The notes under the pieces were generated by a model, which was not told where the DNA came from, did no database searches, and saw only the letters and a program-made list of their open reading frames with translations. From Rhodanobacter sp. 7MK24 (GTDB lineage Bacteria > Pseudomonadota > Gammaproteobacteria > Xanthomonadales > Rhodanobacteraceae), in NCBI RefSeq assembly GCF_014842995.1, contig NZ_JACYXL010000007.1, positions 1-64,000 of the forward strand: DNA of 64,000 nucleotides, given 5' to 3'. Positions 48,023 to 61,864 of this stretch are shown in pieces. A program made the position numbers and the translations under genes. How positions within the stretch are numbered: position 1 is the first letter of the stretch; each line of letters begins with the position of its first letter.

Positions 48023-49189
48023 ATGTCCAAGAAGACGCCTGTCGCCAGCCACGGACTCGGAACGCGCGCGATCCACGCGGGCCAGCATCCCGATCCCTCG
48101 ACCGGCGCGATCATGACGCCGATCTACGCAACCTCCACCTACGTGCAGGAGAGTCCCGGCAAGCACAAAGGGTACGAGTATTCGCGCACGCAAAATCCTA
48201 CGCGCATGGCTTATGAGCGTTGCGTTGCGGACCTGGAAGGTGGCGTAGCCGGTTTCGCGTTTGCCTCGGGCCTGGCGGCAGCGGCCACCACGCTGGATCT
48301 GCTGGATTCCGGCAGTCACGTGATCGCGATGGACGACCTATATGGCGGCAGCTATCGCTTGTTCGAGCGGGTGCGTCGGCGTTCGGCGGGACTGGATTTC
48401 AGTTTCGTCGATCTGAACGACATGTCTGCGTTGAAAGCGGCGTTGAAGCCGAACACGCGGATGATCTGGGCGGAGACTCCTACCAACCCGATGCTGAAGC
48501 TGGTCGACCTGGCCAAGGTCGCGGCTTTCGCGAAGAAGCATGGTTTGATTCTGGTGGTCGACAACACGTTCTGTTCGCCGATGGTGCAGCGTCCGCTGGA
48601 ATACGGCGCAGACCTGGTGCTGCACTCGGCCACCAAGTACCTGAATGGCCATTCCGACATGGTGGGTGGCATCGTGGTGGCCAACAACAGGGAACTGGCT
48701 GAGCAGATGGGTTTCCTGCAGAACTCGGTGGGTGCGGTCGCTGGCCCGTTCGATGCCTTCCTGGCCATGCGCGGTCTGAAGACGCTGCACCTGCGCATGC
48801 AGGCACATTGTGCGAGCGCGTTGGAGCTGGCCGGTTGGCTGGAGAAGCATCCTGCGGTGGAGCGGGTGATCTACCCGGGCCTGAAGAGCCACCCGCAACG
48901 GTCGCTGGCGAAGCGTCAGATGCAGGGCTTCGGCGGCATCGTCACCATCGAGGTAAAGGGTGGCCTGAAAAAGGCGCGCCGCATGCTGGAGCGCTGCGAG
49001 CTGTTCGCACTGGCCGAGTCGCTCGGCGGCGTGGAAAGCCTGATCGAGCATCCGGCCATCATGACCCATGCCTCGGTGCCGCCGGCCAACCGCAAGCGGC
49101 TGGGTATCAGTGACGGGCTGGTGCGACTCAGCGTCGGCGTGGAGGATATTCGCGATCTGCGCGAAGAATTGACGGCGGCGCTTGCTTGA
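48023..49189 (+). CDS. Cystathionine gamma-lyase / gamma-synthase family enzyme
   Basis: A 388-residue PLP enzyme of the Cys/Met family. Visible: TRAIHAGQHPDPSTGAIMTP, EYSRTQNPTRMAYERCVADL, PTNPMLKLVDL, the PLP lysine in LHSATKYLNGHSD, and LAESLGGVESLIEHPAIMTH. With the window's cystathionine beta-synthase, gamma-lyase (cysteine from cystathionine) is more likely than gamma-synthase, but the sequence alone does not settle it. In Xanthomonas the corresponding gene (called metB) flanks the variable LPS locus, and wzm follows here as well. The start at 48023 gives the usual family length. Confidence 0.9.
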   Translation: MSKKTPVASHGLGTRAIHAGQHPDPSTGAIMTPIYATSTYVQESPGKHKGYEYSRTQNPTRMAYERCVADLEGGVAGFAFASGLAAAATTLDLLDSGSHVIAMDDLYGGSYRLFERVRRRSAGLDFSFVDLNDMSALKAALKPNTRMIWAETPTNPMLKLVDLAKVAAFAKKHGLILVVDNTFCSPMVQRPLEYGADLVLHSATKYLNGHSDMVGGIVVANNRELAEQMGFLQNSVGAVAGPFDAFLAMRGLKTLHLRMQAHCASALELAGWLEKHPAVERVIYPGLKSHPQRSLAKRQMQGFGGIVTIEVKGGLKKARRMLERCELFALAESLGGVESLIEHPAIMTHASVPPANRKRLGISDGLVRLSVGVEDIRDLREELTAALA

Positions 49190-49226
49190 CCGCGGGCGTC
49201 CCAAACAAGGGAATGAGGTTACCGAA

Positions 49227-50060
49227 TTGAATCTTCCCGCTGCTGCCGTGTCAGGCCGATCCGCATCCGGGCCATTCAATGCACTCGTTGCTCACCGGTC
49301 GCTGACGTTGGAGTTGGCCAAGCGCGATGTGCTGGGTCGTTACCGTGGTGCCAGTTTTGGTTTGCTGTGGTCGTTGATTAGCCCGTTCCTGATGCTGATG
49401 GTCTATTCGTTCGCTTTCGGCTTCGTGATGAAGTCGCGCTGGCCGCAAACGGATAGCGGCCATGCCCACTATTCGATCATCCTGTTCATCGGCCTGATCG
49501 TGCACGGTTTCTTCGCAGAATGCCTCAACCGATCGCCGCACTTGATTACTGGCAACGCCAATTTCGTCAAGCGGGTGATTTTCCCGCTGGAAATTCTGCC
49601 GTGGCCGATGGTTATGTCGGCGCTCTTTCATACTTTCATGAATTTTCTGGTGTTCCTGGTGCTGCACTTGGTGCTTGACCATACGATGGCGTGGACAACC
49701 GTCCTGCTCCCGGTGGTGATGTTGCCGCTGGTATTGCTGACCTTGGGCGTGTCCTGGTTGCTGGCAGCTCTGGGGGTTTATCTGCGCGACATCAGCCAGA
49801 TTACCGGTGTGCTGGCGACCGCCATGCTGTTTCTGTCCACGGCGATGTTTCCGATCACGGCGCTGCCGCCGCAATACCGCTGGTTGCTATTCATGAATCC
49901 GTTGAGTTTCATCATCGACCAGGCGCGCGAAGTGGCGTTGTGGGGACACTATCCCGACTGGATCGGATTGGGCATTTACACGTTGTGCGCCTTGGTCGTG
50001 CTTTATCTGGGGTACTCGGTATTTCGTCTTACCCGACGGGGGTTCGCCGATGTCATCTGA
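49227..50060 (+). CDS. wzm: ABC transporter permease of O-antigen export
   Basis: The membrane half of the exporter that moves finished O-polysaccharide across the inner membrane. About 277 residues with six helices of the ABC-2 type (LWSLISPFLMLMVYSFAFGF, MVMSALFHTFMNFLVFLVL, YPDWIGLGIYTLCALVVLYL) and the amphipathic front LELAKRDVLGRYRGASFG. The start is uncertain: I use TTG 49227 because GAGGT lies seven bases before it. A TTG at 49182 would overlap the preceding gene; a GTG at 49248 is also in frame. It overlaps wzt by 11 bases. Confidence 0.92.
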   Translation: MNLPAAAVSGRSASGPFNALVAHRSLTLELAKRDVLGRYRGASFGLLWSLISPFLMLMVYSFAFGFVMKSRWPQTDSGHAHYSIILFIGLIVHGFFAECLNRSPHLITGNANFVKRVIFPLEILPWPMVMSALFHTFMNFLVFLVLHLVLDHTMAWTTVLLPVVMLPLVLLTLGVSWLLAALGVYLRDISQITGVLATAMLFLSTAMFPITALPPQYRWLLFMNPLSFIIDQAREVALWGHYPDWIGLGIYTLCALVVLYLGYSVFRLTRRGFADVI

Positions 50061-51468
50061 AGCTGCCATTCACGTCGAGCGGCTCAGCAAATCATTTCCC
50101 GTCTACGACAAGCCGATGCATCGGCTTTATCAGATGTTTTCTCCGCGCTCGGCCAAGCAACGTTGGTACCGTGAGTTCCGCGCGTTGAAGGACATCGATC
50201 TCACGATCGGCAAGGGAGAGACCCTGGGTATCGTCGGGCGCAACGGCTCGGGCAAATCCACCTTGCTGCAGATCATCTGCGGCACGTTGGAGCCGTCCGC
50301 CGGCAAAGTGCAGGTCAGTGGACGCATTGCCGCCTTACTGGAACTGGGGGCCGGATTCAATCCCGAATTCACCGGGCGCGAGAACGTGTTGCTGTATGGC
50401 ACCGTGCTTGGACTTACGCGGCAGCAGGTTGAGCAGCGTTTCGACGAGATCGCCGCATTCGCGGATATCGGCGAGTTCATGGATCAGCCGGTCAAGTGCT
50501 ATTCGAGCGGCATGTATGTGCGCCTGGCGTTTGCCGTGGCGATCAACGTGACGCCGGACATCCTGGTGGTTGATGAAGCTTTGTCGGTGGGCGACGAGGC
50601 GTTCCAGCGCAAGTGCTTCGCACGCATCAACCGCATCCGAGACGAGGGTGCAACCGTATTGTTCGTTTCCCATTCGGCAGGCATCGTCACACAGTTGTGC
50701 GACCGCGCGGTGTTGCTGGATCGGGGTGAGTTGCTTTCGAGCGGTTCACCCAAGTTCGTGGTGTCGCGATACCACAAGATGCTGTACGTGCCAGCGGATC
50801 GTGCCGATGCCGTACGCGAAGCGATCCGCGCCGAACGCGAGGATGTGCAGCAGCCCGTCGAGATGCCGGAGATGTCCGAGGCCGATCGCGAGGATGTCCG
50901 TCTGGTGGCTTCGGTGGCGATCGAGGGAAGCTCGCCGGTTGGCGGGGAAGGGGCAGACGCGCGGGGCTGGTTCGATGAAGGACTCGTGCCGAAAAGCACA
51001 ATGCGCTATGACACGCGTGGTGCTCGGATTGCCGTGCCGCACATCGAGACGCCGCAAGGACGCAAGGTCAACGTGTTGCATGCCGGTGACGACTACGTTT
51101 ACGTGTACCACGTGGAGTTTTCGGAGTCGGCGGCCTCGGTGCGGTGCGGGATGCTGATCAAGACCTTGACCGGATTGGAGCTGGGCGGTGGTGTTACCAG
51201 CCTGCTCGAGGATTCAGTCCCGCTGGTGGAGCACGGGCAGACCATCGAGGCGCGCTTTCGTTTCCGATGTCTGTTGGAATCGGGTACCTACTTTCTCAAC
51301 GCGGGTGTGCTGGCGCGGATCGGAGAGGAGGAGACGTACGTCGATCGCCTGATCGATGCAGCGATGTTCCGCGTGATGCCGCAGCCGGAGCGTCTTGCCA
51401 CCGGCTTCGTCGATTTCTGCGTGACGGCGGAGGCTGCGGTGATGGATTTCTGCAAGGTGCAGGTATGA
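50050..51468 (+). CDS. wzt: ABC transporter ATP-binding protein of O-antigen export with C-terminal recognition domain
   Basis: A 472-residue ATPase. The nucleotide-binding domain (about 1-245) has Walker A GRNGSGKST (63-71), signature YSSGMYVRLAFAVAI and Walker B DILVVDEALSVGDEAFQ. After a linker rich in Glu/Asp, residues about 300-472 form a Wzt_C beta-sandwich (RVLGARIAVPHIETP-like start, VRCGMLIKTLTGLELGGG). In E. coli O8/O9a this domain binds the modified non-reducing end of the chain and gates export. Its presence implies that the polymer here also carries a terminal or chain modification. The stop overlaps the start of the next gene by ATGA. Confidence 0.95.
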   Translation: MSSEAAIHVERLSKSFPVYDKPMHRLYQMFSPRSAKQRWYREFRALKDIDLTIGKGETLGIVGRNGSGKSTLLQIICGTLEPSAGKVQVSGRIAALLELGAGFNPEFTGRENVLLYGTVLGLTRQQVEQRFDEIAAFADIGEFMDQPVKCYSSGMYVRLAFAVAINVTPDILVVDEALSVGDEAFQRKCFARINRIRDEGATVLFVSHSAGIVTQLCDRAVLLDRGELLSSGSPKFVVSRYHKMLYVPADRADAVREAIRAEREDVQQPVEMPEMSEADREDVRLVASVAIEGSSPVGGEGADARGWFDEGLVPKSTMRYDTRGARIAVPHIETPQGRKVNVLHAGDDYVYVYHVEFSESAASVRCGMLIKTLTGLELGGGVTSLLEDSVPLVEHGQTIEARFRFRCLLESGTYFLNAGVLARIGEEETYVDRLIDAAMFRVMPQPERLATGFVDFCVTAEAAVMDFCKVQV

Positions 51469-54400
51469 CCAAGGAGCAACGCGGGCCTCGACAGGCTCTG
51501 CTGGTCATCGGCATGCATCGCAGTGGCACCTCTGCGCTGACGCGGCTGATCAACCTGCATGGGATAACGCTGGGCTCCGATTTGCTAGAGGCCGCCTTCG
51601 ACAACGAGGCCGGCTTCTGGGAGAACCGTAAGGTGGTGGAGTTCCATGAGCGCGTGTTGGTTGTGCTCGACTCCAGTTGGGACGATCCGCGTGAGTTGCA
51701 TGCGGACTGGCTTGAACAGGTGCGGGCGGCGGGCTTGATGGATGAGTTGGCGGCGATCATCGTATCCGAGTTTGGGGACATGCCGATCTGGGCGGTGAAG
51801 GATCCTCGTCTCTGTCGCCTGCTGCCTATGTGGCTGGAGACGCTGGCACGACTGGATATCGAGCCGAAGCTGATCTTCGCTATGCGTCATCCAGGTGAAG
51901 TGGCTGGCTCGTTGATTCGGCGCAACGACTTGTCTGCCGCCACTGCTACCTTGATTTGGTTGCGACATCTCGTTGAGCCGGTGAAGGCATCGAGGTACGC
52001 CACTCGCTGCATTACCGACTACAACGCCGTGTTGGGCGACTGGCGCGCCTGCATGGTCCGGATCGCGGACGACCTTGGTCTGGTCTGGCCGGTGTCTTCA
52101 GCTCGCTGTGCGGATGAGGCAGATGCCTGTTTGCGACACGACCTGCGGCATCAGAATTCGACGACGACAGAAGCACTGCTCCCGGAAGTCTGGCGCGATT
52201 CCATTCTGAATGGATATGCGAGTGGCTTGGCCGTGATGGAACAGCGAGGTAGCTGGGCCGATTTCGAGGCGAGCCTGGATGCATTGATGGTGCGCTTCGA
52301 GTTCGCGCGGCCGTTGATGGCTGAGCTGCAGCCCAGATCCAATCTGGATCGGCTGGCCAAAGCCGAGCAAGGTGTGAAGGCCTACCGCGCTGAAGCGGAG
52401 CGTCTGCTCAGTGAAAGCGGTGCAGCTCGCAAGGAAGTGGCGCGCGTCAAGCAGGAACTGGTCGATGCCCGTGGCGAGCTCGCCAAGCGCAATGCTCGCA
52501 TTCGCGTGCTGGAGCAGGTGCGCGACGAACTGGATCTGATCAAGGCCAGCCGTTCCTGGCGCTGGACACGCTTCCTACGCTTCGCTTTGCGTGTATTGCG
52601 TGGCGGTGGCCGCCTGGGCGATGCCGACCGTGATCAGCTGCGGCGGCAGTTGAAACGCGCGCGAGGCTTCCAGTCGAAGGTGGCGCCAAATGAGTCTTCA
52701 GTCTTCGCCGGACTGCCGGTGCAACCTACCGCATGGCTGGCGACACCGTCGAACGATCGCCGCGATGTGTTTGTATGGGCCGTGATTGACTGGCACTTCC
52801 GCATTCAGCGACCGCAGCACCTGTCGCGTGAGTTGGCTCATGCGGGCCATCGTGTGTTCTACGTCTCCAACGACTTCATCGATCACGACGAACCTGGCTT
52901 TGCGGTCGAGCCGCTCGATGACGAGGGAAGGCTGTTCCGCATCCGGCTGCATCTGAAAGGTTGTCCGGCGATTTACCACGCGGTACCCACGCCCGTCGTG
53001 CAGCAACAGCTGTGTGCTGGCGTTGGTCAGTTGCTGTCGTGGACACGGAGCCGTGCGTGTCTTTCGCTAGTGCAACACCCATACTGGCTGGAGGCGGCTC
53101 GCATCCTGCCGAACGAGCGGCTTGCCTACGATTGCATGGACCATCACGGCGGCTTCGCCGACAACAGTCCAGAGGTGCTGGAGCGTGAGAACGAGCTGAT
53201 GCGCAAGGCCGACCTGCTGGTGGTCACTTCGGACTGGTTGTACGAGGAAGCAGGCAAGTACAACCCGCATTGCCTGACGATACGTAATGCTTGCCAGTAC
53301 GACCATTTCGCCATCCGGCCCAACCAGGTATTCCGCGACAAACAGGGACGCAAGGTGATCGGCTATTACGGCGCGATCGCCGAATGGTTCGATCTCGACT
53401 TGTTGGAGAAGGTGGCGCAGCGCCACGCCGATTGTCTGGTGCTGCTGATCGGCGCCGACACCACTGGCGCGCAGCAGCGGCTGCGGCATCTGGCCAACGT
53501 TGAGTTCACCGGCGAGGTGCCTTATGCGGAGCTACCGTACTATCTGCACGGCTTCGACGTATGCCTGCTGCCGTTCCAGGTGATACCGCTGACTCTCGCC
53601 ACCAACCCTGTGAAGGTCTACGAGTACTTGAGTGCGGGCAAGGAAGTGGTGTCGATCGCGCTGCCAGAGATCCGCCAGTTCGGCGATCTGGTGCGTACGG
53701 GCGACGGTCATGCCGCGTTTCTTGTTGCTGTGGACGAAGCCTTGCGGGTTATACCCGATCCAGACAGGATCGCACGGCGCCAACGCTTTGCCGCCGAACA
53801 GACTTGGGCGCATCGCGTGCATGACCTCATTCAGGGTGTCGATGCGCTGCCCGAGTCCCGGGTCAGTGTTGTCGTTGTCACTTACAACAACCTTGACCTT
53901 ACCAAGGTCTGTCTGCGCAGCCTGGAGCAATACAGCGACTACACCAATCTTGAGATAGTTGTGGTCGACAACGCCTCCAGCGACGGCACGCCCGACTATC
54001 TCACGGCATGGGCCGCCGCTGGCAGAGATCGGCGCCTGATCCTCAACCCAGACAACCGCGGTTTCGCCGCTGCGAACAACCAGGGCCTGTCGACGGCAGA
54101 TGGCGATTACCTGGTACTGCTCAATAACGATACGCACGTGACGCCCGGCTGGATTGCCACGCTAGTTTCGCACCTGCGTCGCACGGAGGGGCTCGGCATG
54201 GTCGGTCCGGTGACCAACAACATCGGCAACGAAGCGCGCGTCGAGATCAGCTACGACAACATGGAAAGCATGCTGCATGCTGCGGCAGATTACACCGCGC
54301 GCCACGCGGGGCAACTGACACCGTTGCGCACCGCTGCGTTCTTCTGCGTGATGATGCCTCGTCGCGTGTATGAAGCTGTGGGTGAATTGGACGAGGCCTT

Positions 54401-54617
54401 TGGCATCGGCATGTTCGAGGACGATGACTACTGTCGCCGCGTGCAGCATGCGGGCTGGAGCATCGCTTGCGCCGATGACGTGTTCATCCACCACCACCTC
54501 TCGGCTTCGTTCAGCCAGATCAAGCAGGAGAAGCGGCAGGCTATGTTCGAACAGAACAAGGCGATCTATGAAGCCAAGTGGGGGCCGTGGGAGCCGCACA
54601 AATATCGGCAAACCTAG
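51465..54617 (+). CDS. Sulfotransferase-coiled-coil-glycosyltransferase-glycosyltransferase fusion
   Basis: A 1050-residue cytoplasmic protein with three enzyme-like parts. (1) About 10-280: a PAPS sulfotransferase-like domain with phosphosulfate loop VIGMHRSGTSALTR (16-25) and 3'-phosphate-like FAMRHPGEVAGSLIRR near 140. (2) About 295-365: a coiled coil of heptads (EAERLLSESGAARKEVARVK onward) ending in SRSWRWTRFLR, a motif common between fused glycosyltransferase modules. (3) About 430-780: a GT-B fold glycosyltransferase (FVWAVIDWHFRIQRPQHLSR, IGYYGAIAEWFDLDLLEKVA, NPVKVYEYLSAGKEV). (4) About 799-1040: a GT-A family 2 domain (VSVVVVTYNNLDLTKVCLRS, VVVDNASSDGTPDYL, LLNNDTHVTPG, FEDDDYCRRVQHAGW). 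It starts inside the wzt stop codon, so it is made together with the exporter ATPase. Acceptor sugars are unknown. Confidence 0.9.
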   Translation: MTKEQRGPRQALLVIGMHRSGTSALTRLINLHGITLGSDLLEAAFDNEAGFWENRKVVEFHERVLVVLDSSWDDPRELHADWLEQVRAAGLMDELAAIIVSEFGDMPIWAVKDPRLCRLLPMWLETLARLDIEPKLIFAMRHPGEVAGSLIRRNDLSAATATLIWLRHLVEPVKASRYATRCITDYNAVLGDWRACMVRIADDLGLVWPVSSARCADEADACLRHDLRHQNSTTTEALLPEVWRDSILNGYASGLAVMEQRGSWADFEASLDALMVRFEFARPLMAELQPRSNLDRLAKAEQGVKAYRAEAERLLSESGAARKEVARVKQELVDARGELAKRNARIRVLEQVRDELDLIKASRSWRWTRFLRFALRVLRGGGRLGDADRDQLRRQLKRARGFQSKVAPNESSVFAGLPVQPTAWLATPSNDRRDVFVWAVIDWHFRIQRPQHLSRELAHAGHRVFYVSNDFIDHDEPGFAVEPLDDEGRLFRIRLHLKGCPAIYHAVPTPVVQQQLCAGVGQLLSWTRSRACLSLVQHPYWLEAARILPNERLAYDCMDHHGGFADNSPEVLERENELMRKADLLVVTSDWLYEEAGKYNPHCLTIRNACQYDHFAIRPNQVFRDKQGRKVIGYYGAIAEWFDLDLLEKVAQRHADCLVLLIGADTTGAQQRLRHLANVEFTGEVPYAELPYYLHGFDVCLLPFQVIPLTLATNPVKVYEYLSAGKEVVSIALPEIRQFGDLVRTGDGHAAFLVAVDEALRVIPDPDRIARRQRFAAEQTWAHRVHDLIQGVDALPESRVSVVVVTYNNLDLTKVCLRSLEQYSDYTNLEIVVVDNASSDGTPDYLTAWAAAGRDRRLILNPDNRGFAAANNQGLSTADGDYLVLLNNDTHVTPGWIATLVSHLRRTEGLGMVGPVTNNIGNEARVEISYDNMESMLHAAADYTARHAGQLTPLRTAAFFCVMMPRRVYEAVGELDEAFGIGMFEDDDYCRRVQHAGWSIACADDVFIHHHLSASFSQIKQEKRQAMFEQNKAIYEAKWGPWEPHKYRQT

Positions 54618-54710: not shown

Positions 54711-57602
54711 ATGATCGGTCTGGTGGGGAAGCGGGCAACCCGATGGCGTGAGATGCCATCGCTCCTGCTCTGGGTTGGCTGCGCGCTGACCGTTGTTGGC
54801 ATTGCAGTCAATGGCATGTGGAGTAGCGTGCCGTGGGCACCGGCGACGTTACTGGTCAAGCTGGGGCTCGCAGTTACCCTGGCGGCATGGGTGATGAAGC
54901 GCCCGACGGGTTTGTCGATGGCTACGTCCGCCGGTCTCATCTGGCTGTTGGCGCTTATCTACTTCGCGGGCCTCGCTTCTTTCGCTGCCGTGGCTCTGCT
55001 TGCGCTGGCGAGCGTGGCTCTTGGCAGCTTGCTCATTCCAGCGGATTGGGCGGCGCGAGGCACGTTGTCGATCCTGGCGGGGCTGGCGCTGATTGTCGGG
55101 GTGGCGGGCTGGCTTTTGCCTTTTCCGGTGCATAGGCGCGCGGCTTACTTCGTCGTGCTGATTGCAATGGTCCTTGTGCGTTGGCGGGTTGTCGGCGAGG
55201 TACTGAGGCCGATCCCGCAAGCATGGCGTGCGGCGGTCGCCTCGGCTCCTGCAGGCATGTGGCTGGCGGTCACAGCCATGGGCATCGCCACGATCTGCGC
55301 GTGGATGCCCACCGTGCATTTCGACGACTTGGCCGGACATCTGGCACTGCCTTCGCAGTTGGTCAGCCTTGGCTACTACAAGATGGACGCGGCTTCCCAG
55401 GTATGGGCGGTAACTGCCTGGGCGTCGGATGTGTTGCAGGGCGTGGCTTGGCTGGTAGCCGGGCAGGAATCACGCGCCATCCTTGACGCATTCTGGCTGC
55501 TCACTGGTTTGGTTCTCATCTGGCACCTGTGTGAGGCTCTCGACTTGCCACCATGGCTGCGTTGCCTTGCCGTGGCCCTGTATGCCAGCTTGCCTCTGAC
55601 CGCAGGCGCCGTGACGGGCATGCAGACGGAAGGACCAACCGCAGCATTGACAGCCGGTATTGCCCTGCTGATCCAACGCTCGCCGGGGCCCGGTCGTCGC
55701 CAACTGCTGGCGTTCTCTTTGTTGTTTGGCCTGCTCCTGGCCCTGAAGGTCAGCAACTTGATGGTTGCAGGACCGCTGGGCTTGTGGTTGCTTTGTCGCT
55801 GGCGCACACGCTTGCCTTGGCGATTCCTGCCAGTGGCATTGCTACTTTTGTTGCTGGTCGCAGGATCTAGTTACACCTATGGCTGGATAACGACTGGAAA
55901 CCCGGTATTGCCGGTTTTCAATGGCATATTCCATTCGCCCTATTACGCGCCCATAAATTTCCATGACGGTCATTGGGACTCGGGTTTTCATTGGGACATT
56001 GTTTGGAACCTGGTATTTCACACCTCGCGTTATATTGAGGGCGGCGACGGTACGGCCGGTTTCACCCTTGTTGCATTAGGTGGCAGCTTGCTCGTGGCCC
56101 TGTTAGATCGTCGAGCCAGACCACTTGCTTTGGTGGCCCTTGGATCCTTTCTGCTGCCGTTGACTCAACTCCAATATCTGCGCTATGCGCATCAGGCGCT
56201 GGTGTTGATGATCCCTGCCATGCTTTGTGGCCTGCCGGCGCTTGCTCATGAATCACGTAGCCTGCCGTGGATCGCTGGTGTGTTGGTTGCACTCGTCGTG
56301 ACCAACGTGGCTTTCATTTCGGCCGGGGCTTGGCAGCTCATGGGGGGCGAGCTCGGGCAGTTCCTGAAGGAACCTCGGCAGGACTTCATGGAGAGTTATG
56401 CCCCGGTTGATCGCTTGATCGACGTCGTCAACCAACGTTACGGACCACATGCACGTGTGCTGATTGCCGCCGCCAATGCACCATATGCCGCAGGTTTTGC
56501 GGGTAAGGCGTATGTAATCGATTGGTACGACGGTGAACTGAATGCCAAGGCACAACAGGCGGACAAGGATTCCTCTGGGAGTGCGTGGGCACGCTTGCTC
56601 GATGAAACCGGAGCAAACTTGCTGGTGCTGCAATCGGGCCACGTATCGACAGCCCTTGTTTCCGAATTGGTGGCAGCTCGAGGTGAACTGGTACTCCAGT
56701 CGGGCGATCTGCAGCTATGGGAAGTAAGGCGCGCCATATCCGGCAGCCTCCTGCCAAGTCCCTCCGGCACCATAAATCTGAACTTCGATGTTGCCGCCAT
56801 GCCGACACAGGCAGTGCTTGCGAAGGCCAGAGTGGTTCTTGGCTGCACGCATAGCGGTGAACCGGTGGCCTTGTCCTGGACTATTGCCAGGGAGGGCGCC
56901 GAACCGTGGTCGTATTCCGAATGGGTGAATTGCCTGCCGGACCGTACTGCACATGCAACGCTGGACGTCGCAATTCCGCAGACCGTTGCCGCCTTTAAGT
57001 TGATTGCCCAACCTGCCAAGGCGCCGGACATGAAACTGTCCCTGATCTCCGCTGACTTGGACGCACGCCGCGATCTCGGGCGGCAGCGCGATCTTGCGCT
57101 TCGAATGCGGGAAAAGCTTCGGTCCGTCCTGGCCGCCTGGGTCGATCCCTGGACAGGAAAGGGCGTCATGCATGCCGGATTGCCGGTGCGGCGCGAGCCT
57201 GCGCAAGGGGTGGCTGTCGATTTCGGGACGTCCGCGGCTCCATCTGTCGCTGGCATCGTCCATGCCACGCTGGAATTGGGCTGCCATTATTCACCGACTC
57301 CGATAACGGTAGGCTGGAAGATGGCAGTGCAAGGCGACGCGCCGGACTCACAATATGCATGGATGTATTGCGGCCGGGACGGGGTGGCGCGTGCGTCGTT
57401 CGATGCCAGGGCCCGGCATCGCGTGACATCACTGGAAGTAAGCGCGGTGACTTCCGAGGACGAGGGCACAGGGTTGCGATTGTTGAACGCTCAATCGGGG
57501 TACGCCAAGGCGTCGGGTCTGCGAGGCAGCATCAACCGCAGGCGCATCAAGCTGGCAAAATGGCTGAACCGGGCTCCTGAAGTAACGCGGATTGATCCAT
57601 GA
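54711..57602 (+). CDS. GT-C-like polytopic membrane protein with tandem C-terminal repeats
   Basis: A 963-residue protein. Residues 1 to about 560 hold a dozen or more hydrophobic helices and an early loop HFDDLAGHLALPSQL with acidic residues, as in GT-C glycosyltransferases or polymerases that use lipid-linked sugars. From about 560 the protein is soluble, presumably periplasmic. Within it, two tandem segments align (about 700-790 and 846-935): each reads L-G-C, then a W-x-(I/M) strand, then W-(V/M)-x-C. The cysteines are 712/741 and 858/887, both 29 apart. I know of no named domain. The ATG has a GGGGAG ribosome site. The stop overlaps gtrA (ATGA). The soluble part may bind glycan. Confidence 0.8.
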   Translation: MIGLVGKRATRWREMPSLLLWVGCALTVVGIAVNGMWSSVPWAPATLLVKLGLAVTLAAWVMKRPTGLSMATSAGLIWLLALIYFAGLASFAAVALLALASVALGSLLIPADWAARGTLSILAGLALIVGVAGWLLPFPVHRRAAYFVVLIAMVLVRWRVVGEVLRPIPQAWRAAVASAPAGMWLAVTAMGIATICAWMPTVHFDDLAGHLALPSQLVSLGYYKMDAASQVWAVTAWASDVLQGVAWLVAGQESRAILDAFWLLTGLVLIWHLCEALDLPPWLRCLAVALYASLPLTAGAVTGMQTEGPTAALTAGIALLIQRSPGPGRRQLLAFSLLFGLLLALKVSNLMVAGPLGLWLLCRWRTRLPWRFLPVALLLLLLVAGSSYTYGWITTGNPVLPVFNGIFHSPYYAPINFHDGHWDSGFHWDIVWNLVFHTSRYIEGGDGTAGFTLVALGGSLLVALLDRRARPLALVALGSFLLPLTQLQYLRYAHQALVLMIPAMLCGLPALAHESRSLPWIAGVLVALVVTNVAFISAGAWQLMGGELGQFLKEPRQDFMESYAPVDRLIDVVNQRYGPHARVLIAAANAPYAAGFAGKAYVIDWYDGELNAKAQQADKDSSGSAWARLLDETGANLLVLQSGHVSTALVSELVAARGELVLQSGDLQLWEVRRAISGSLLPSPSGTINLNFDVAAMPTQAVLAKARVVLGCTHSGEPVALSWTIAREGAEPWSYSEWVNCLPDRTAHATLDVAIPQTVAAFKLIAQPAKAPDMKLSLISADLDARRDLGRQRDLALRMREKLRSVLAAWVDPWTGKGVMHAGLPVRREPAQGVAVDFGTSAAPSVAGIVHATLELGCHYSPTPITVGWKMAVQGDAPDSQYAWMYCGRDGVARASFDARARHRVTSLEVSAVTSEDEGTGLRLLNAQSGYAKASGLRGSINRRRIKLAKWLNRAPEVTRIDP

Positions 57603-57982
57603 GCATCGCGCGCCAAGGAATCAGTTTCCTTCTTGTGGGCGTTTGTCTGGTTGTTGCCGACTGGGCGGTGTTCGTGATGCTGACGGCTCTAGGCGTTGCG
57701 CCACCGGAAGCCAATGTTGCGGGGCGTGTCGCAGGTGCCTTGCTGGGGTTCTGGGCAAATGGAAGGATCACGTTCGGAGCAGACAGGTCTTCCAAGCTTG
57801 GGCACAGGCATTTTGCCAAGTTCGCCACTTCGTGGCTGGTGGTGACTTTTCTAAGCACATATCTGGTGACAATCGTGGCCGATTATCTGGGCCTGAAGAT
57901 GGCATGGCTGGCTAAGCCCATTGTCGAAGGAATGCTGGCCATGTTGACGTTCTTCATTTCACGCTATTGGGTGTATCGATGA
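57599..57982 (+). CDS. GtrA family membrane protein
   Basis: A 127-residue four-helix protein of the GtrA family: QGISFLLVGVCLVVADWAVF, VAGRVAGALLGFWANGRITF, WLVVTFLSTYLVTIVADYL, LTFFISRYWVYR. GtrA proteins are thought to flip undecaprenyl-phosphate-linked sugars for late O-antigen modification. ATGA overlaps tie it to the gene before and the GtrB-like gene after, the same GtrA-GtrB pairing as in serotype-conversion cassettes. Confidence 0.93.
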   Translation: MSIARQGISFLLVGVCLVVADWAVFVMLTALGVAPPEANVAGRVAGALLGFWANGRITFGADRSSKLGHRHFAKFATSWLVVTFLSTYLVTIVADYLGLKMAWLAKPIVEGMLAMLTFFISRYWVYR

Positions 57983-58974
57983 GCACAAGTGCTGCCACGT
58001 CGAACCAGCGCATCGCCGTCGTGATTCCATGCTATCGGGTGGCGGCGCACGTGCTCGGCGTGATTGAAAGGATCGGTCCCGAGGTGGGCTGGATCATTGC
58101 CGTGGACGACGCTTGCCCCGAGCGCAGCGGCGACGTGATCGAGCAGCAATGCAGCGATCCGCGTGTAAGGGTGTTGCGGCACGCCGAGAACCAGGGCGTA
58201 GGTGGTGCGGTTATGACCGGTTATTTAGCTGCAATCGACTTGCCAGCAGATGCCGTCGTGAAGCTGGACGGCGATGGCCAGATGGCCCCAGAGCTGATCG
58301 CCCGGCTTGCGGCGCCGTTGCTTGCGGGGAGAGCGGACTATGTCAAAGGGAATCGCTTTCACCGAGTGGCCGACGTGGCCGGCATGCCGGCGATACGTCT
58401 GGTCGGGAATGCGGTGCTTTCGTTCCTGACCAAGCTTTCTTCGGGGTACTGGCAACTCTTCGACCCCACCAACGGTTTCACGGCAATCCACCGGCGCGTG
58501 CTGGCCGAACTGGACGTGACGCGGATCGCCAAGCGTTATTTTTTTGAATCGGACATGCTGTACAACCTGAACCAACTGCGGGCCGTGGTGGTGGACATGC
58601 CCATGCAGGCCAGCTATGGCGATGAATCCTCCAGTCTGCGGCCATTGCACATGATTGGTCCTTTCATGCGCGGCAACCTAAGAAATTTTTTCCGGAGACT
58701 GTTGTACAGCTATTTCCTCAGGGGATTCTCGGCAGCCTCCCTGGAGTTGGCGTTGGGGTTTCCCATGTTTGTATTTGGCGTGCTGTTTGGTGTCTGGCAT
58801 TGGTGGGCTTCTGTTGCCGGTCGTGCACCAGCCACTGCGGGTACCGTCATGCTGGCGGCGCTCCCGCTCATTATTGGAACGCAGTTTTTGTTGTCCTGGC
58901 TGAACTTCGATATTGCGTCGGAACCGAAATATGTAATCCATTTTGATCTCGATGGAAGAGATGGATCAGAATAA
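57979..58974 (+). CDS. GtrB/DPM1-like polyprenyl-phosphate glycosyltransferase (family 2)
   Basis: A 331-residue GT2 enzyme that would load a sugar on undecaprenyl phosphate. The catalytic domain has IAVVIPCYRVAAHVLGVIER, AVDDACPERSGDVIE, VVKLDGDGQMAPELI and DPTNGFTAIHRRVL. Two C-terminal helices (LELALGFPMFVFGVLFGVWH, AALPLIIGTQFLLSWLNF) anchor it. It starts inside the gtrA stop codon, so donor synthase and flippase are coupled. With the GT-C-like protein upstream this makes a three-part Gtr-like module (synthase, flippase, membrane transferase) for periplasmic chain decoration. The sugar is unknown. Confidence 0.92.
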   Translation: MSTSAATSNQRIAVVIPCYRVAAHVLGVIERIGPEVGWIIAVDDACPERSGDVIEQQCSDPRVRVLRHAENQGVGGAVMTGYLAAIDLPADAVVKLDGDGQMAPELIARLAAPLLAGRADYVKGNRFHRVADVAGMPAIRLVGNAVLSFLTKLSSGYWQLFDPTNGFTAIHRRVLAELDVTRIAKRYFFESDMLYNLNQLRAVVVDMPMQASYGDESSSLRPLHMIGPFMRGNLRNFFRRLLYSYFLRGFSAASLELALGFPMFVFGVLFGVWHWWASVAGRAPATAGTVMLAALPLIIGTQFLLSWLNFDIASEPKYVIHFDLDGRDGSE

Positions 58975-60748: not shown

Positions 60749-61864
60749 ATGAAACATATACTCTGCATCGTCGGCACGCGACCCGAAGGCATCAAGATGG
60801 CGCCGCTGATCAAGGCGCTGAAGCGTGAGCCGTGGGCGCGGGTGACGGTGCTGGCCACGGCGCAGCATCGCGATCTGCTGGATCAAGTGCTTGCACTGTT
60901 CGACATCGTGCCGGATGTGGATCTGGACATCATGCGACCGAACCAGGCGCTGCCCGAACTCACGGCGCGGCTGGTCATGGCGCTGGACGAGAAGTTCGGC
61001 GAGTTGGCACCAGACGTGGTGCTGGCGCAGGGCGACACCACGACGGTGATGACGGCGGCGCTGGTGGCGTTCTATCGCCGCATCCCGTTCGGGCACGTGG
61101 AAGCAGGATTGCGAACCCACGACCTGGACAATCCGTTCCCGGAGGAGATGAACCGGTTGGTGGCCGGACACCTGGCGCGCTGGCACTTCGTGCCAACCCA
61201 GCGGTCGCGGCAGAACCTGTTGCGCGAGGGCATCTCCGACGCAGCAATACATGTGACCGGCAACACGGTGATCGACGCGCTGCTGGAAGTTGCGGCGACT
61301 GAGTGGCCGCTGGACATTCCACTGGATGCTAGCAAACGGCTGGTGCTGGTCACCGCGCACAGGCGCGAGAACTTCGGCGAGCCCTTCCGTGCTGTATGCC
61401 GCGCGATTCGGCAGCTAGTGGATCTTTATCCGGACATCGAAGTGGTCTATCCGGTACATCCGAATCCGAACGTGCGTGCTACGGCGCACGAGCTGCTCGG
61501 CAATCATTCGCGTATCCGTCTCTGCCAGCCGCTCGACTATGCGCCGTTCGTGGAGATACAAAAGCGTGCGTACCTGATCCTTACCGACTCCGGCGGTGTG
61601 CAGGAGGAGGCGCCGGCGCTGGGCAAGCCGGTGTTGGTGCTGCGCACGGAAACCGAGCGTCCGGAAGCGGTGGACGAAGGTGTAGTGCGACTAGTCGGCA
61701 CCGACGAGGCATGCATCGTGGCGGAGGCTTCGCAACTGCTTGAGAACGAGGCGGCTTATCGCGCGATGGCGCGTGGAGTTTCGCCCTACGGCGACGGCCA
61801 CGCGGCGTGTCGCATCGTCGATGTGTTGCGTGATGCCTTGTGTGCGGGCGCCGGCGGCGCCTGA
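60749..61864 (+). CDS. wecB: UDP-N-acetylglucosamine 2-epimerase (non-hydrolysing)
   Basis: Interconverts UDP-GlcNAc and UDP-ManNAc, feeding N-acetylmannosamine-type sugars to the polysaccharide. The 371 residues include ILCIVGTRPEGIKMAPLIKA, VLAQGDTTTVMTAALVAF, PFGHVEAGLRTHDLDNPFPE, NRLVAGHLARWHFVPT, LVTAHRRENFGEP and LTDSGGVQEEAPALGKPVLV with RTETERPEA. The start ATG 60749 follows directly after an extended -10 promoter with no ribosome site. No UDP-ManNAc dehydrogenase (wecC) is seen downstream in this window. Confidence 0.95.
   Translation: MKHILCIVGTRPEGIKMAPLIKALKREPWARVTVLATAQHRDLLDQVLALFDIVPDVDLDIMRPNQALPELTARLVMALDEKFGELAPDVVLAQGDTTTVMTAALVAFYRRIPFGHVEAGLRTHDLDNPFPEEMNRLVAGHLARWHFVPTQRSRQNLLREGISDAAIHVTGNTVIDALLEVAATEWPLDIPLDASKRLVLVTAHRRENFGEPFRAVCRAIRQLVDLYPDIEVVYPVHPNPNVRATAHELLGNHSRIRLCQPLDYAPFVEIQKRAYLILTDSGGVQEEAPALGKPVLVLRTETERPEAVDEGVVRLVGTDEACIVAEASQLLENEAAYRAMARGVSPYGDGHAACRIVDVLRDALCAGAGGA

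What the first reader, a model, noticed from the sequence alone, without database searches (positions are those of the whole stretch)
51465..54617. Sulfotransferase, coiled coil and two glycosyltransferases fused in one protein and coupled to wzt
The sequence shows a 5'-phosphosulfate loop, then 60-70 residues of heptads, then a GT-B and a GT-A family 2 domain, starting inside the stop codon of wzt, whose C-terminal domain should recognise a modified chain. In E. coli O8/O9a, WbdD caps the chain and its coiled coil acts as a ruler for polymerase WbdA, with Wzt reading the cap. Here polymerase, ruler and a possible capping sulfotransferase sit in one polypeptide. My inference is an O-antigen system whose length or end is set by sulfation. 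The coiled coil may instead be only a linker.
Basis: partly seen in the sequence, partly recalled or inferred. Interest (0 to 1): 0.75.

Follow-up and report, generated by a model that had tools for sequence, protein, structure and literature searches.

The report
Probable sulfate-capping O-antigen polymerase
One bacterial protein seems to build a surface sugar chain and to end it with a sulfate group that its matching exporter recognises; the layout is known from other bacteria, but sulfate as the end mark would be new.

Summary
Window 51465-54617 encodes 1,050 residues: a PAPS-type sulfotransferase (ST) domain, a 71-residue coiled coil, an Arg/Trp-rich stretch, a GT-B and a GT2 domain. Its ATG overlaps the wzt stop. 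The format is known: Klebsiella O7 and O12 proteins join terminator, coiled-coil ruler and polymerase. Sulfate as terminator I found in none of the papers seen.

Three results favour a terminal, exporter-read sulfate. (1) In 96 wzm-wzt loci of the order, an ST lies within 6 kb after wzt in 25 of 26 loci with the window's Wzt C-domain type and in 0 of 70 others. (2) Near kin carry the same GT-B/GT2 (77-82% identical) behind a methyltransferase or DUF4915, each with a different Wzm-Wzt; gene trees conflict accordingly, so exporter plus cap domain behave as a cassette. (3) The Aquifex Wzt tryptophan that stacks on a methyl cap aligns with Arg433 here: Arg in 25 of 25 ST loci, Trp in 19 of 19 Methyltransf_11 loci.

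Not shown: enzyme activity, sulfate in the glycan, ruler function. Many STs of this family lie away from wzt, one window-type Wzt (G259) lacks an ST, and Arg433 also occurs without ST.

The parts
51465..54617 (+). fused sulfotransferase / coiled coil / GT-B / GT2 protein, 1,050 aa plus stop
   Evidence: open frame; Pfam
51492..52169 (+). sulfotransferase domain, residues 10-235; candidate cap (terminator) domain
   Evidence: profile; conservation
51510..51533 (+). 5'-phosphosulfate loop, residues 16-23 (GMHRSGTS)
   Evidence: RSGTS 25 of 25 loci
51798..51809 (+). KDPR motif, residues 112-115
   Evidence: 25 of 25 loci; invariant in 56 sequences
51885..51911 (+). 3'-phosphate-binding stretch, R141 to S149
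   Evidence: R141 and S149 25 of 25; invariant in 56 sequences
52335..52547 (+). coiled coil, residues 291-361; candidate ruler
   Evidence: heptad test
52548..52607 (+). Arg/Trp amphipathic stretch, residues 362-381; candidate membrane anchor
   Evidence: sequence itself; region (355-430) 46-59% identical in ST, MT and DUF4915 versions; membrane role inferred from WbdD (PMC11231755 passage)
52782..53834 (+). GT-B (GT4-like) glycosyltransferase domain, residues about 440-790
   Evidence: Pfam match 631-756; borders from homology
53853..54599 (+). GT2 (GT-A) glycosyltransferase domain, residues 797-1045
   Evidence: Pfam
50050..51468 (+). wzt, ABC-transporter ATPase with C-terminal carbohydrate-binding domain
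   Evidence: ABC_tran and Wzt_C
51001..51414 (+). Wzt_C domain of the ST-paired type, residues 318-455
   Evidence: AlphaFold2 beta-rich model, pLDDT 86.5
51346..51348 (+). codon of Wzt Arg433, aligned with the methyl-cap-stacking Trp362 of A. aeolicus Wzt
   Evidence: PMC9445017 section 9
49182..50060 (+). wzm, ABC-transporter permease
   Evidence: ABC2_membrane, (start codon uncertain)
48023..49189 (+). metB-like gene flanking the locus (named by eye, no family scan); outside the swapped cassette
60749..61864 (+). UDP-GlcNAc 2-epimerase (wecB-like); 87-89% identical in three loci with swapped cap domains
   Evidence: Pfam

Best explanation
This is a one-protein O-antigen polymerase and terminator. 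The two C-terminal glycosyltransferases extend the lipid-linked chain at the inner membrane. The coiled coil holds the N-terminal sulfotransferase at a distance. When the growing end reaches it, the enzyme moves sulfate from PAPS to the non-reducing terminal sugar. That stops elongation and makes the end mark which the paired Wzt C-terminal domain, with Arg433, binds to start export. Shown by sequence: domains, PAPS motifs, coiled coil, gene coupling, pairing with one Wzt-C type, and cassette swaps. Inferred: activity, terminal placement of sulfate, Wzt binding of sulfate, and the ruler function.
For: Motifs kept and family by profile. Pairing: ST within 6 kb downstream in 25 of 26 loci with window-type Wzt-C, 0 of 70 without; no ST-profile hit below E 0.5 in any ORF of 100 aa or more in those 70 loci. 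Swap: same GT-B/GT2 behind Methyltransf_11 (G206, G210) or DUF4915 (G179), each with other Wzm-Wzt; the GT data reject one clade of the ST-bearing window, G145 and G067 (p-AU 0.0116), the Wzt data reject the window with G206 and G210 (p-AU 5.9e-5). Slot: among the 70 non-ST loci, 19 have a Methyltransf_11-type domain there; in 47 further first ORFs methyltransferase models match most often, and GT99 in 3; G039 has a WbdD homologue. Reader: Trp362 of Aquifex Wzt, which stacks on the methyl cap (PMC9445017), aligns with Arg433; Arg 25 of 25 ST, Trp 19 of 19 Methyltransf_11. Precedent: K. pneumoniae O7 terminator + coil + two GTs in one protein (PMC11231755). Coil: 71 residues here, 244 in G145, where it is largely 17.8 copies of a 21-bp unit (76% matches, 0% indels). 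APS kinase on the same contig.
Against: No enzyme or glycan data. G259 has window-type Wzt-C with DUF4915, no ST. In G295 the ST is 3.5 kb away and in G075 metB lies between. In L195 an ST follows a wzt whose C-domain does not match. Outside the order 4 of 9 loci with related Wzt-C have an ST near (G663's of another ST family, G349's behind a methyltransferase), 4 do not, 1 is cut off. The full architecture in G173, and GT2-ST fusions in L042-L048, sit beside Wzt without a C-domain; they fall outside the 96-locus table. 45 of 70 ST loci have no such ATPase in the stretch held. Strict phylogenetic pairs: only 3 (2 agree, 0 disagree, 1 no change), not significant. The GT tree has no well-supported inner branch. 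Arg at 433 is also in 17 loci of the order without ST, so it is not specific to sulfate.
Confidence: 0.74

Rival explanations
1. The sulfotransferase sulfates internal residues (each or some repeat units), and the coiled coil is only a spacer; Wzt-C recognises the sulfated polymer, not its end.
For: ST relatives are common in loci without wzt (45 of 70 have none in the stretch held), and occur as C-terminal domains after GT2 beside Wzt lacking a C-domain (L042-L048); so the family is not committed to capping.
Against: The domain stands in the slot held by methyltransferases, a WbdD homologue or GT99 in sister loci, at the far end of a coil from the GTs as in known terminators (PMC11231755); the A. 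aeolicus Wzt C-domain binds the non-reducing end (PMC9445017).
Confidence: 0.13
2. The sulfotransferase caps some chains but does not set length or license export, like the pyruvyl group of Klebsiella O1.
For: Klebsiella O1: terminal pyruvate not needed for length or export (PMC11231755, passage read); ST unlinked from wzt by metB in G075 and by 3.5 kb in G295.
Against: The tight pairing with one Wzt C-domain type (25 of 26 against 0 of 70) and joint swapping with the exporter are not expected of an optional decoration.
Confidence: 0.08
3. The domain is not a working sulfotransferase (another donor, or a structural relic).
For: Pfam Sulfotransfer_3 is below its cut-off for this protein (16.7 against 27 bits).
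Against: 5'-loop and 3'-phosphate residues conserved in 25 of 25 loci and in 56 diverse sequences; of 22 PDB sequences matched by the profile 18 are named sulfotransferases and 2 retinol dehydratases; relatives pass the Pfam cut-off (L082 27.9 bits, L080 28.1 bits).
Confidence: 0.04

Closest known systems
Klebsiella pneumoniae O7 ORF6 (methyltransferase-kinase + coiled coil + two GT2)
   Same: N-terminal terminator, central coiled coil, two C-terminal GT modules in one protein, in a wzm-wzt locus (PMC11231755: abstract, section 11 part 1, discussion part 1 and passages read)
   Different: terminator is a methyltransferase-kinase giving methylphosphate; here a sulfotransferase; GTs are GT2+GT2 there, GT-B+GT2 here
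E. coli O9a / K. pneumoniae O3 WbdD with WbdA and Wzt
   Same: cap enzyme, coiled-coil ruler, amphipathic membrane region (PMC11231755 passages); the only solved relative of this Wzt-C by single-sequence search is 2r5o (E 0.015), which I know as the O9a domain (recalled)
   Different: separate polymerase; kinase-methyltransferase cap
K. pneumoniae O12 WbbB (Kdo terminator, coiled coil, two polymerase GTs)
   Same: all-in-one terminator, ruler and polymerase (PMC11231755 discussion)
   Different: sugar cap (Kdo, recalled as the GT99 module), other GT families
Aquifex aeolicus Wzm-Wzt
   Same: Wzt C-domain related by profile (E 1.7e-4) and its cap-pocket residues align with L369, N417, G419, R433 here
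   Different: reads 3-O-methyl sugar through Trp362 (PMC9445017); Arg here
Aeromonas salmonicida wbsalmo ORF19
   Same: a 216-residue protein with a sulfotransferase domain annotated between wzt and wbbB (PMC4483657, passage read)
   Different: separate short protein, no function proposed in the passages read; not compared by sequence here

Membership tests
Coiled-coil terminator proteins of ABC-exported glycans | gene in a wzm-wzt locus | tested here: met
   (that the product is an O-antigen is inferred)
Coiled-coil terminator proteins of ABC-exported glycans | extended coiled coil between cap enzyme and polymerase part | tested here: met
   residues 291-361, 0 of 1,000 shuffles, (sequence only; no model of this part)
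Coiled-coil terminator proteins of ABC-exported glycans | cap-forming enzyme at the far end of the coil | tested here: inconclusive
   ST with kept PAPS residues; capping activity not tested
Coiled-coil terminator proteins of ABC-exported glycans | partner Wzt with cap-reading C-domain | tested here: met
   Wzt_C 100.9 bits, cut-off 30.4; binding not tested
Coiled-coil terminator proteins of ABC-exported glycans | coil length sets chain length | not testable with these tools
   coil length varies 71 to 244 residues among kin; chain lengths unknown
WbdD | methyltransferase plus kinase | tested here: not met
   no such domain in P0001; a WbdD homologue sits in the same slot in G039 (E 4.5e-45)
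PAPS-dependent sulfotransferases | 5'-phosphosulfate loop and 3'-phosphate Arg/Ser | tested here: met
   (motif definition recalled)
PAPS-dependent sulfotransferases | Pfam gathering score | tested here: not met
   16.7 of 27 bits for P0001; met by relatives L080 and L082
PAPS-dependent sulfotransferases | fold by structure comparison | not tested
PAPS-dependent sulfotransferases | sulfate transfer | not testable with these tools

The most novel reading that the evidence does not exclude
Sulfate is a further end mark for ABC-exported O-antigens, and wzm, wzt and the cap domain form an exchangeable cassette, joined to a constant polymerase through the coiled coil. The Wzt pocket residue follows the cap chemistry: Trp for neutral methyl ends, Arg for charged ends (sulfate, methylphosphate), so the end group of an unknown O-antigen could be read from the genome. 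The ruler can lengthen by whole heptads through 21-bp repeats.
Probability: 0.5. Interest if true: 0.8.

Novelty: new variant of a known kind. Interest (0 to 1): 0.68.

Why it matters
End caps named in the papers read for ABC-exported O-antigens are methyl, methylphosphate and Kdo (PMC9445017 introduction passage, PMC11231755). A sulfate cap would add a new chemistry that depends on cellular PAPS, and puts a charged group at the outermost end of LPS. The natural chimeras (same polymerase, different cap and exporter) make the cap-reader match directly testable, and the Trp/Arg column gives a rule that could predict cap type from sequence.

Tried and rejected
Rejected: that the four-part architecture is itself unprecedented (Klebsiella O7 and O12 have it, PMC11231755). 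Rejected: that window-type Wzt-C and this ST never occur apart; G259, L195 and the phylum loci say otherwise. Rejected as proof: the phylogeny-corrected pair test, because only 3 supported pairs exist; on all branches of the same quick tree there are 16 pairs, but that tree is weakly resolved. Weak lead: Arg365 of Wzt is basic in 88% of the 25 ST-type and in none of 70 others, but it is also present in G259 and absent in G663. Led nowhere: tandem repeats in the window's own coil (none); NCBIfam names for the protein (none over cut-off among the 25 of 26 rows shown). The strict table is limited to the 98 wzm places of at least 180 bits in the 299 genomes (96 with a wzt found; G160 and G111 dropped).
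Full report
What is there. The ORF at 51465-54617 encodes 1,050 residues and starts at an ATGA overlap with wzt. Pfam finds a GT2 domain (E 5.6e-27), a GT-B glycosyltransferase (Glyco_trans_1_4, E 6.7e-9) and, below its cut-off, Sulfotransfer_3 (E 0.0093). Relatives strengthen the weak ST call: a profile from 20 of the 25 wzt-linked domains (A1) matches 22 distinct PDB sequences at E up to 1: 18 named sulfotransferases, 2 retinol dehydratases and 2 'putative uncharacterized proteins'; the best are aryl sulfotransferase (3.5e-4) and tyrosylprotein sulfotransferase (0.0038), the rest lie between 0.022 and 0.67. In 25 of 25 wzt-linked loci the R19-S-G-T-S23 loop, K112-D-P-R115, R141, S149 and E53 are kept (numbers there are 4 too high). 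In 56 sequences (the window and 55 of the 80 loci, from several phyla by their titles) G16, H18, R19, G21, T22, S23, E53, K112-R115, R141 and S149 are invariant. The reading of R19-S23 as the 5'-phosphosulfate loop and of R141/S149 as the 3'-phosphate site is from recall of sulfotransferase motifs.

Coiled coil. Residues 291-361 hold no proline; the a/d hydrophobic contrast is 0.516 against a mean of 0.283 in shuffles (0 of 1,000 reach it), while two control segments of the same protein behave like their shuffles. Related proteins have longer proline-free stretches before the SRSW motif: 244 residues in G145, 103 in G067, and 96, 153 and 110 in the methyltransferase (G206, G210) and DUF4915 (G179) versions (the heptad signal of the last is not above chance, 66 of 1,000). 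In G145 the extra length is 17.8 copies of a 21-bp unit, 76% matches, 0% indels; the window has no such array. After the coil comes ASRSWRWTRFLRFALRVLRGG, with an arginine every three or four residues; WbdD has a membrane-associated amphipathic helix in its C-terminal region after the coil (PMC11231755, passage), so I take it as the anchor by inference.

The locus. metB, wzm, wzt, the fused gene, a large protein (54711-57602; its only Pfam match a weak C-terminal ig domain, many hydrophobic stretches by eye), a short GtrA-like gene (named by eye, not scanned), a GT2, a GNAT, a PIG-L deacetylase, a UDP-GlcNAc 2-epimerase (wecB-like) and a protein with a Sulfatase domain (LTA-synthase-like by recall) follow each other on the + strand. 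Genes that I read by eye as rhamnose-pathway genes lie upstream on the - strand (not scanned). The metB name is also by eye. One APS kinase is encoded at C35:89904-90350 of the same contig, so PAPS can be made; that is usual for sulfate-assimilating bacteria (recalled).

Pairing with the exporter. The ST-plus-coil query matches in 93 of 299 genomes of the order. In the same 299 genomes, 98 wzm places reach 180 bits; 96 have a wzt that my script could find. The window's Wzt C-domain scores at least 85 bits in 26 of the 96 and at most 30 in the other 70. An ST domain follows within 6 kb in 25 of the 26 (24 by script; G270, where the frame starts inside wzt) and in 0 of 70. Of the 25, G295 has the ST 3.5 kb away and G075 has metB between. 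The exception, G259, has DUF4915 in the slot. A maximum-sensitivity search of all ORFs of 100 aa or more in the 70 loci gives no ST hit better than E 0.5, and the RSGT[ST] loop is absent from the N-terminal 320 residues of the first ORF in the 69 loci that have one (G221 has none). On a quick tree of 84 metB proteins, Wzt-C type changes at least 16 times and ST at least 15 times, with one discordant row; but only 3 independent pairs lie on supported branches (2 agree, 0 disagree, 1 without change), so the corrected test alone is not significant.

Outside the order. In 398 genomes of the phylum, 11 match the Wzt-C, 9 outside the order: an ST of this family follows in G490, G402 and, after a methyltransferase, G349; G663 has a Sulfotransfer_1 protein with coiled-coil-like matches, a different branch of the superfamily; G491 has two methyltransferase domains, G372 a GT8-like gene, G573 and G355 nothing that Pfam knows in the ORFs tested, G441 is cut off.

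Natural swaps. G206 and G210 (same genus) and G179 (same family) carry the same GT-B and GT2 (77-82% identical), wecB-like gene (87-89%) and metB (91-93%), but Wzm is 44-47% and the Wzt ATPase part 52-56% identical, the Wzt C-domain 29% over 119 residues (G206) or without a hit (G210, G179), and in place of the ST stands Methyltransf_11 (G206, G210) or DUF4915/TIGR03032 (G179) (the TIGR03032 match is below its cut-off). G145, of another genus, is the reverse: Wzm 84%, Wzt 91 and 77%, ST 60%. The GT data reject one clade of three ST-bearing rows (window, G145, G067; p-AU 0.0116) and the Wzt data reject the window with its congeners (p-AU 5.9e-5) (7 rows each; long branches present, and no inner branch of the GT tree is well supported). 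So exporter and cap domain appear to have moved together against a fixed polymerase, with the join in or near the coil.

What else holds the slot. Of the 70 non-ST loci, 19 have a Methyltransf_11-like domain (at least 200 bits to the G206 or G210 domain) and 3 DUF4915 (G259 is the fourth DUF4915 locus and has window-type Wzt-C). That these 19 lack a kinase was not tested beyond the Pfam scan of two of them (L036, L037). Of the remaining 48, one had no ORF; among 47 scanned, Methyltransf_24 occurs in 17, Methyltransf_11-type models in 15, GT99 in 3 (recalled as the Kdo terminator module of WbbB), PS_pyruv_trans in 2; no sulfotransferase is among the 25 families shown of 44. G039 has a WbdD homologue (E 4.5e-45 over methyltransferase and kinase). 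The ST therefore stands where known terminator types stand.

The A. aeolicus Wzt domain binds its 3-O-methyl cap in a pocket of Leu300, Thr346, Ala348 and Trp362, with Trp362 stacking on the methyl group (PMC9445017, section 9 read). The profile alignment (chain index one above the paper's numbers, checked on Ile299, Leu300, Asn313, Thr346, Ala348, His350, Met353 and Trp362) puts these opposite L369, N417, G419 and R433 of the window Wzt. N417, G419 and R433 are invariant in the 25 ST-type Wzt of the order; R433 also in 15 of 15 rows from the window and named genomes. Across all 96 loci: ST 25 of 25 Arg; Methyltransf_11 19 of 19 Trp; DUF4915 4 of 4 Arg; of the other 48, 30 Trp, 13 Arg, 5 other. 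Eight of the 13 share the DRRYD motif of 2r5o (O9a, methylphosphate cap; identity of 2r5o recalled), and one of these eight, G039, is the WbdD locus; for G100 only the methyltransferase was detected; the other six were not tested for a kinase. This fits Arg for charged ends and Trp for methyl ends, but Wzt-C types are clades, so the number of independent events is small, and some rows align poorly there (G095, G136, G194, G207, G262). The near Wzt-C relatives of the phylum without ST (G573, G491, G372, G355, G441) also have Arg.

Mechanism. The best reading is in the field above: polymerase, ruler and sulfate terminator in one chain, end read by Wzt. [quoted passage not shown] The acceptor sugar is unknown; rhamnose and ManNAc precursors are likely from the genes, by inference.

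Literature. Ten searches of the open PMC library were made, eight of them aimed at a sulfotransferase or sulfate with O-antigen export or termination (two searches gave nothing) and two at WbdD and a review. No listed title or abstract start links a sulfotransferase to O-antigen termination or to Wzt. Opened: PMC11231755 (outline with abstract, section 11 part 1, section 13 part 1, passages; 'sulf' occurs 0 times); PMC9445017 (section 9, passages; 'sulf' 0 times); PMC4483657, PMC13171606 and PMC4390846 (passages). Two more papers that hold all terms (PMC3526765, PMC11976392) were seen as listings only. PMC4483657 lists a 216-residue sulfotransferase-domain protein between wzt and wbbB of Aeromonas salmonicida, without a function in the passages seen. 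Subscription papers are mostly not held, so absence there is not shown.

Verdict. Observation confirmed; interpretation supported in its main point (the chain end), with the ruler still an inference and the architecture itself already known. New variant of a known kind.

Noticed in passing
L054:5886-9116 (-), L129, L131, L132: DUF4915/TIGR03032-like domain sits in the cap slot after wzt, in L054 fused to the same GT-B/GT2 as the window protein; its function is unknown, and it may be another terminator.
   Followed up: partly
L076:9793-10166: Coiled coil of the G145 relative is built of 17.8 copies of a 21-bp (heptad) unit without indels, so coil length can change by whole heptads.
   Followed up: partly
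L132 (G259): Window-type Wzt C-domain followed by a DUF4915 protein rather than a sulfotransferase: the one exception among the 26 such loci of the order.
   Followed up: partly
L042-L048: GT2 proteins (frames of 883-1,050 residues) with a C-terminal ST-like domain beside wzm and a wzt that shows no match beyond the ATPase part; the linker shows no coiled-coil signal in five of the seven tested.
   Followed up: partly
L253:6883-7929 (-): Sulfotransfer_1 protein with coiled-coil-like matches directly after a distantly related Wzt in a genome of the same class: perhaps a second, separate origin of the same scheme.
   Followed up: no
window 54711-58974: Large protein with many hydrophobic stretches and a weak C-terminal ig-domain match, then GtrA-like (by eye) and GT2 genes: looks like a three-component system adding a side-chain sugar after export.
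   Followed up: no
A4 members: Polysaccharide pyruvyl transferase domains (2 of 47) and GT99 (3 of 47) also occur in the first gene after wzt in this order.
   Followed up: no
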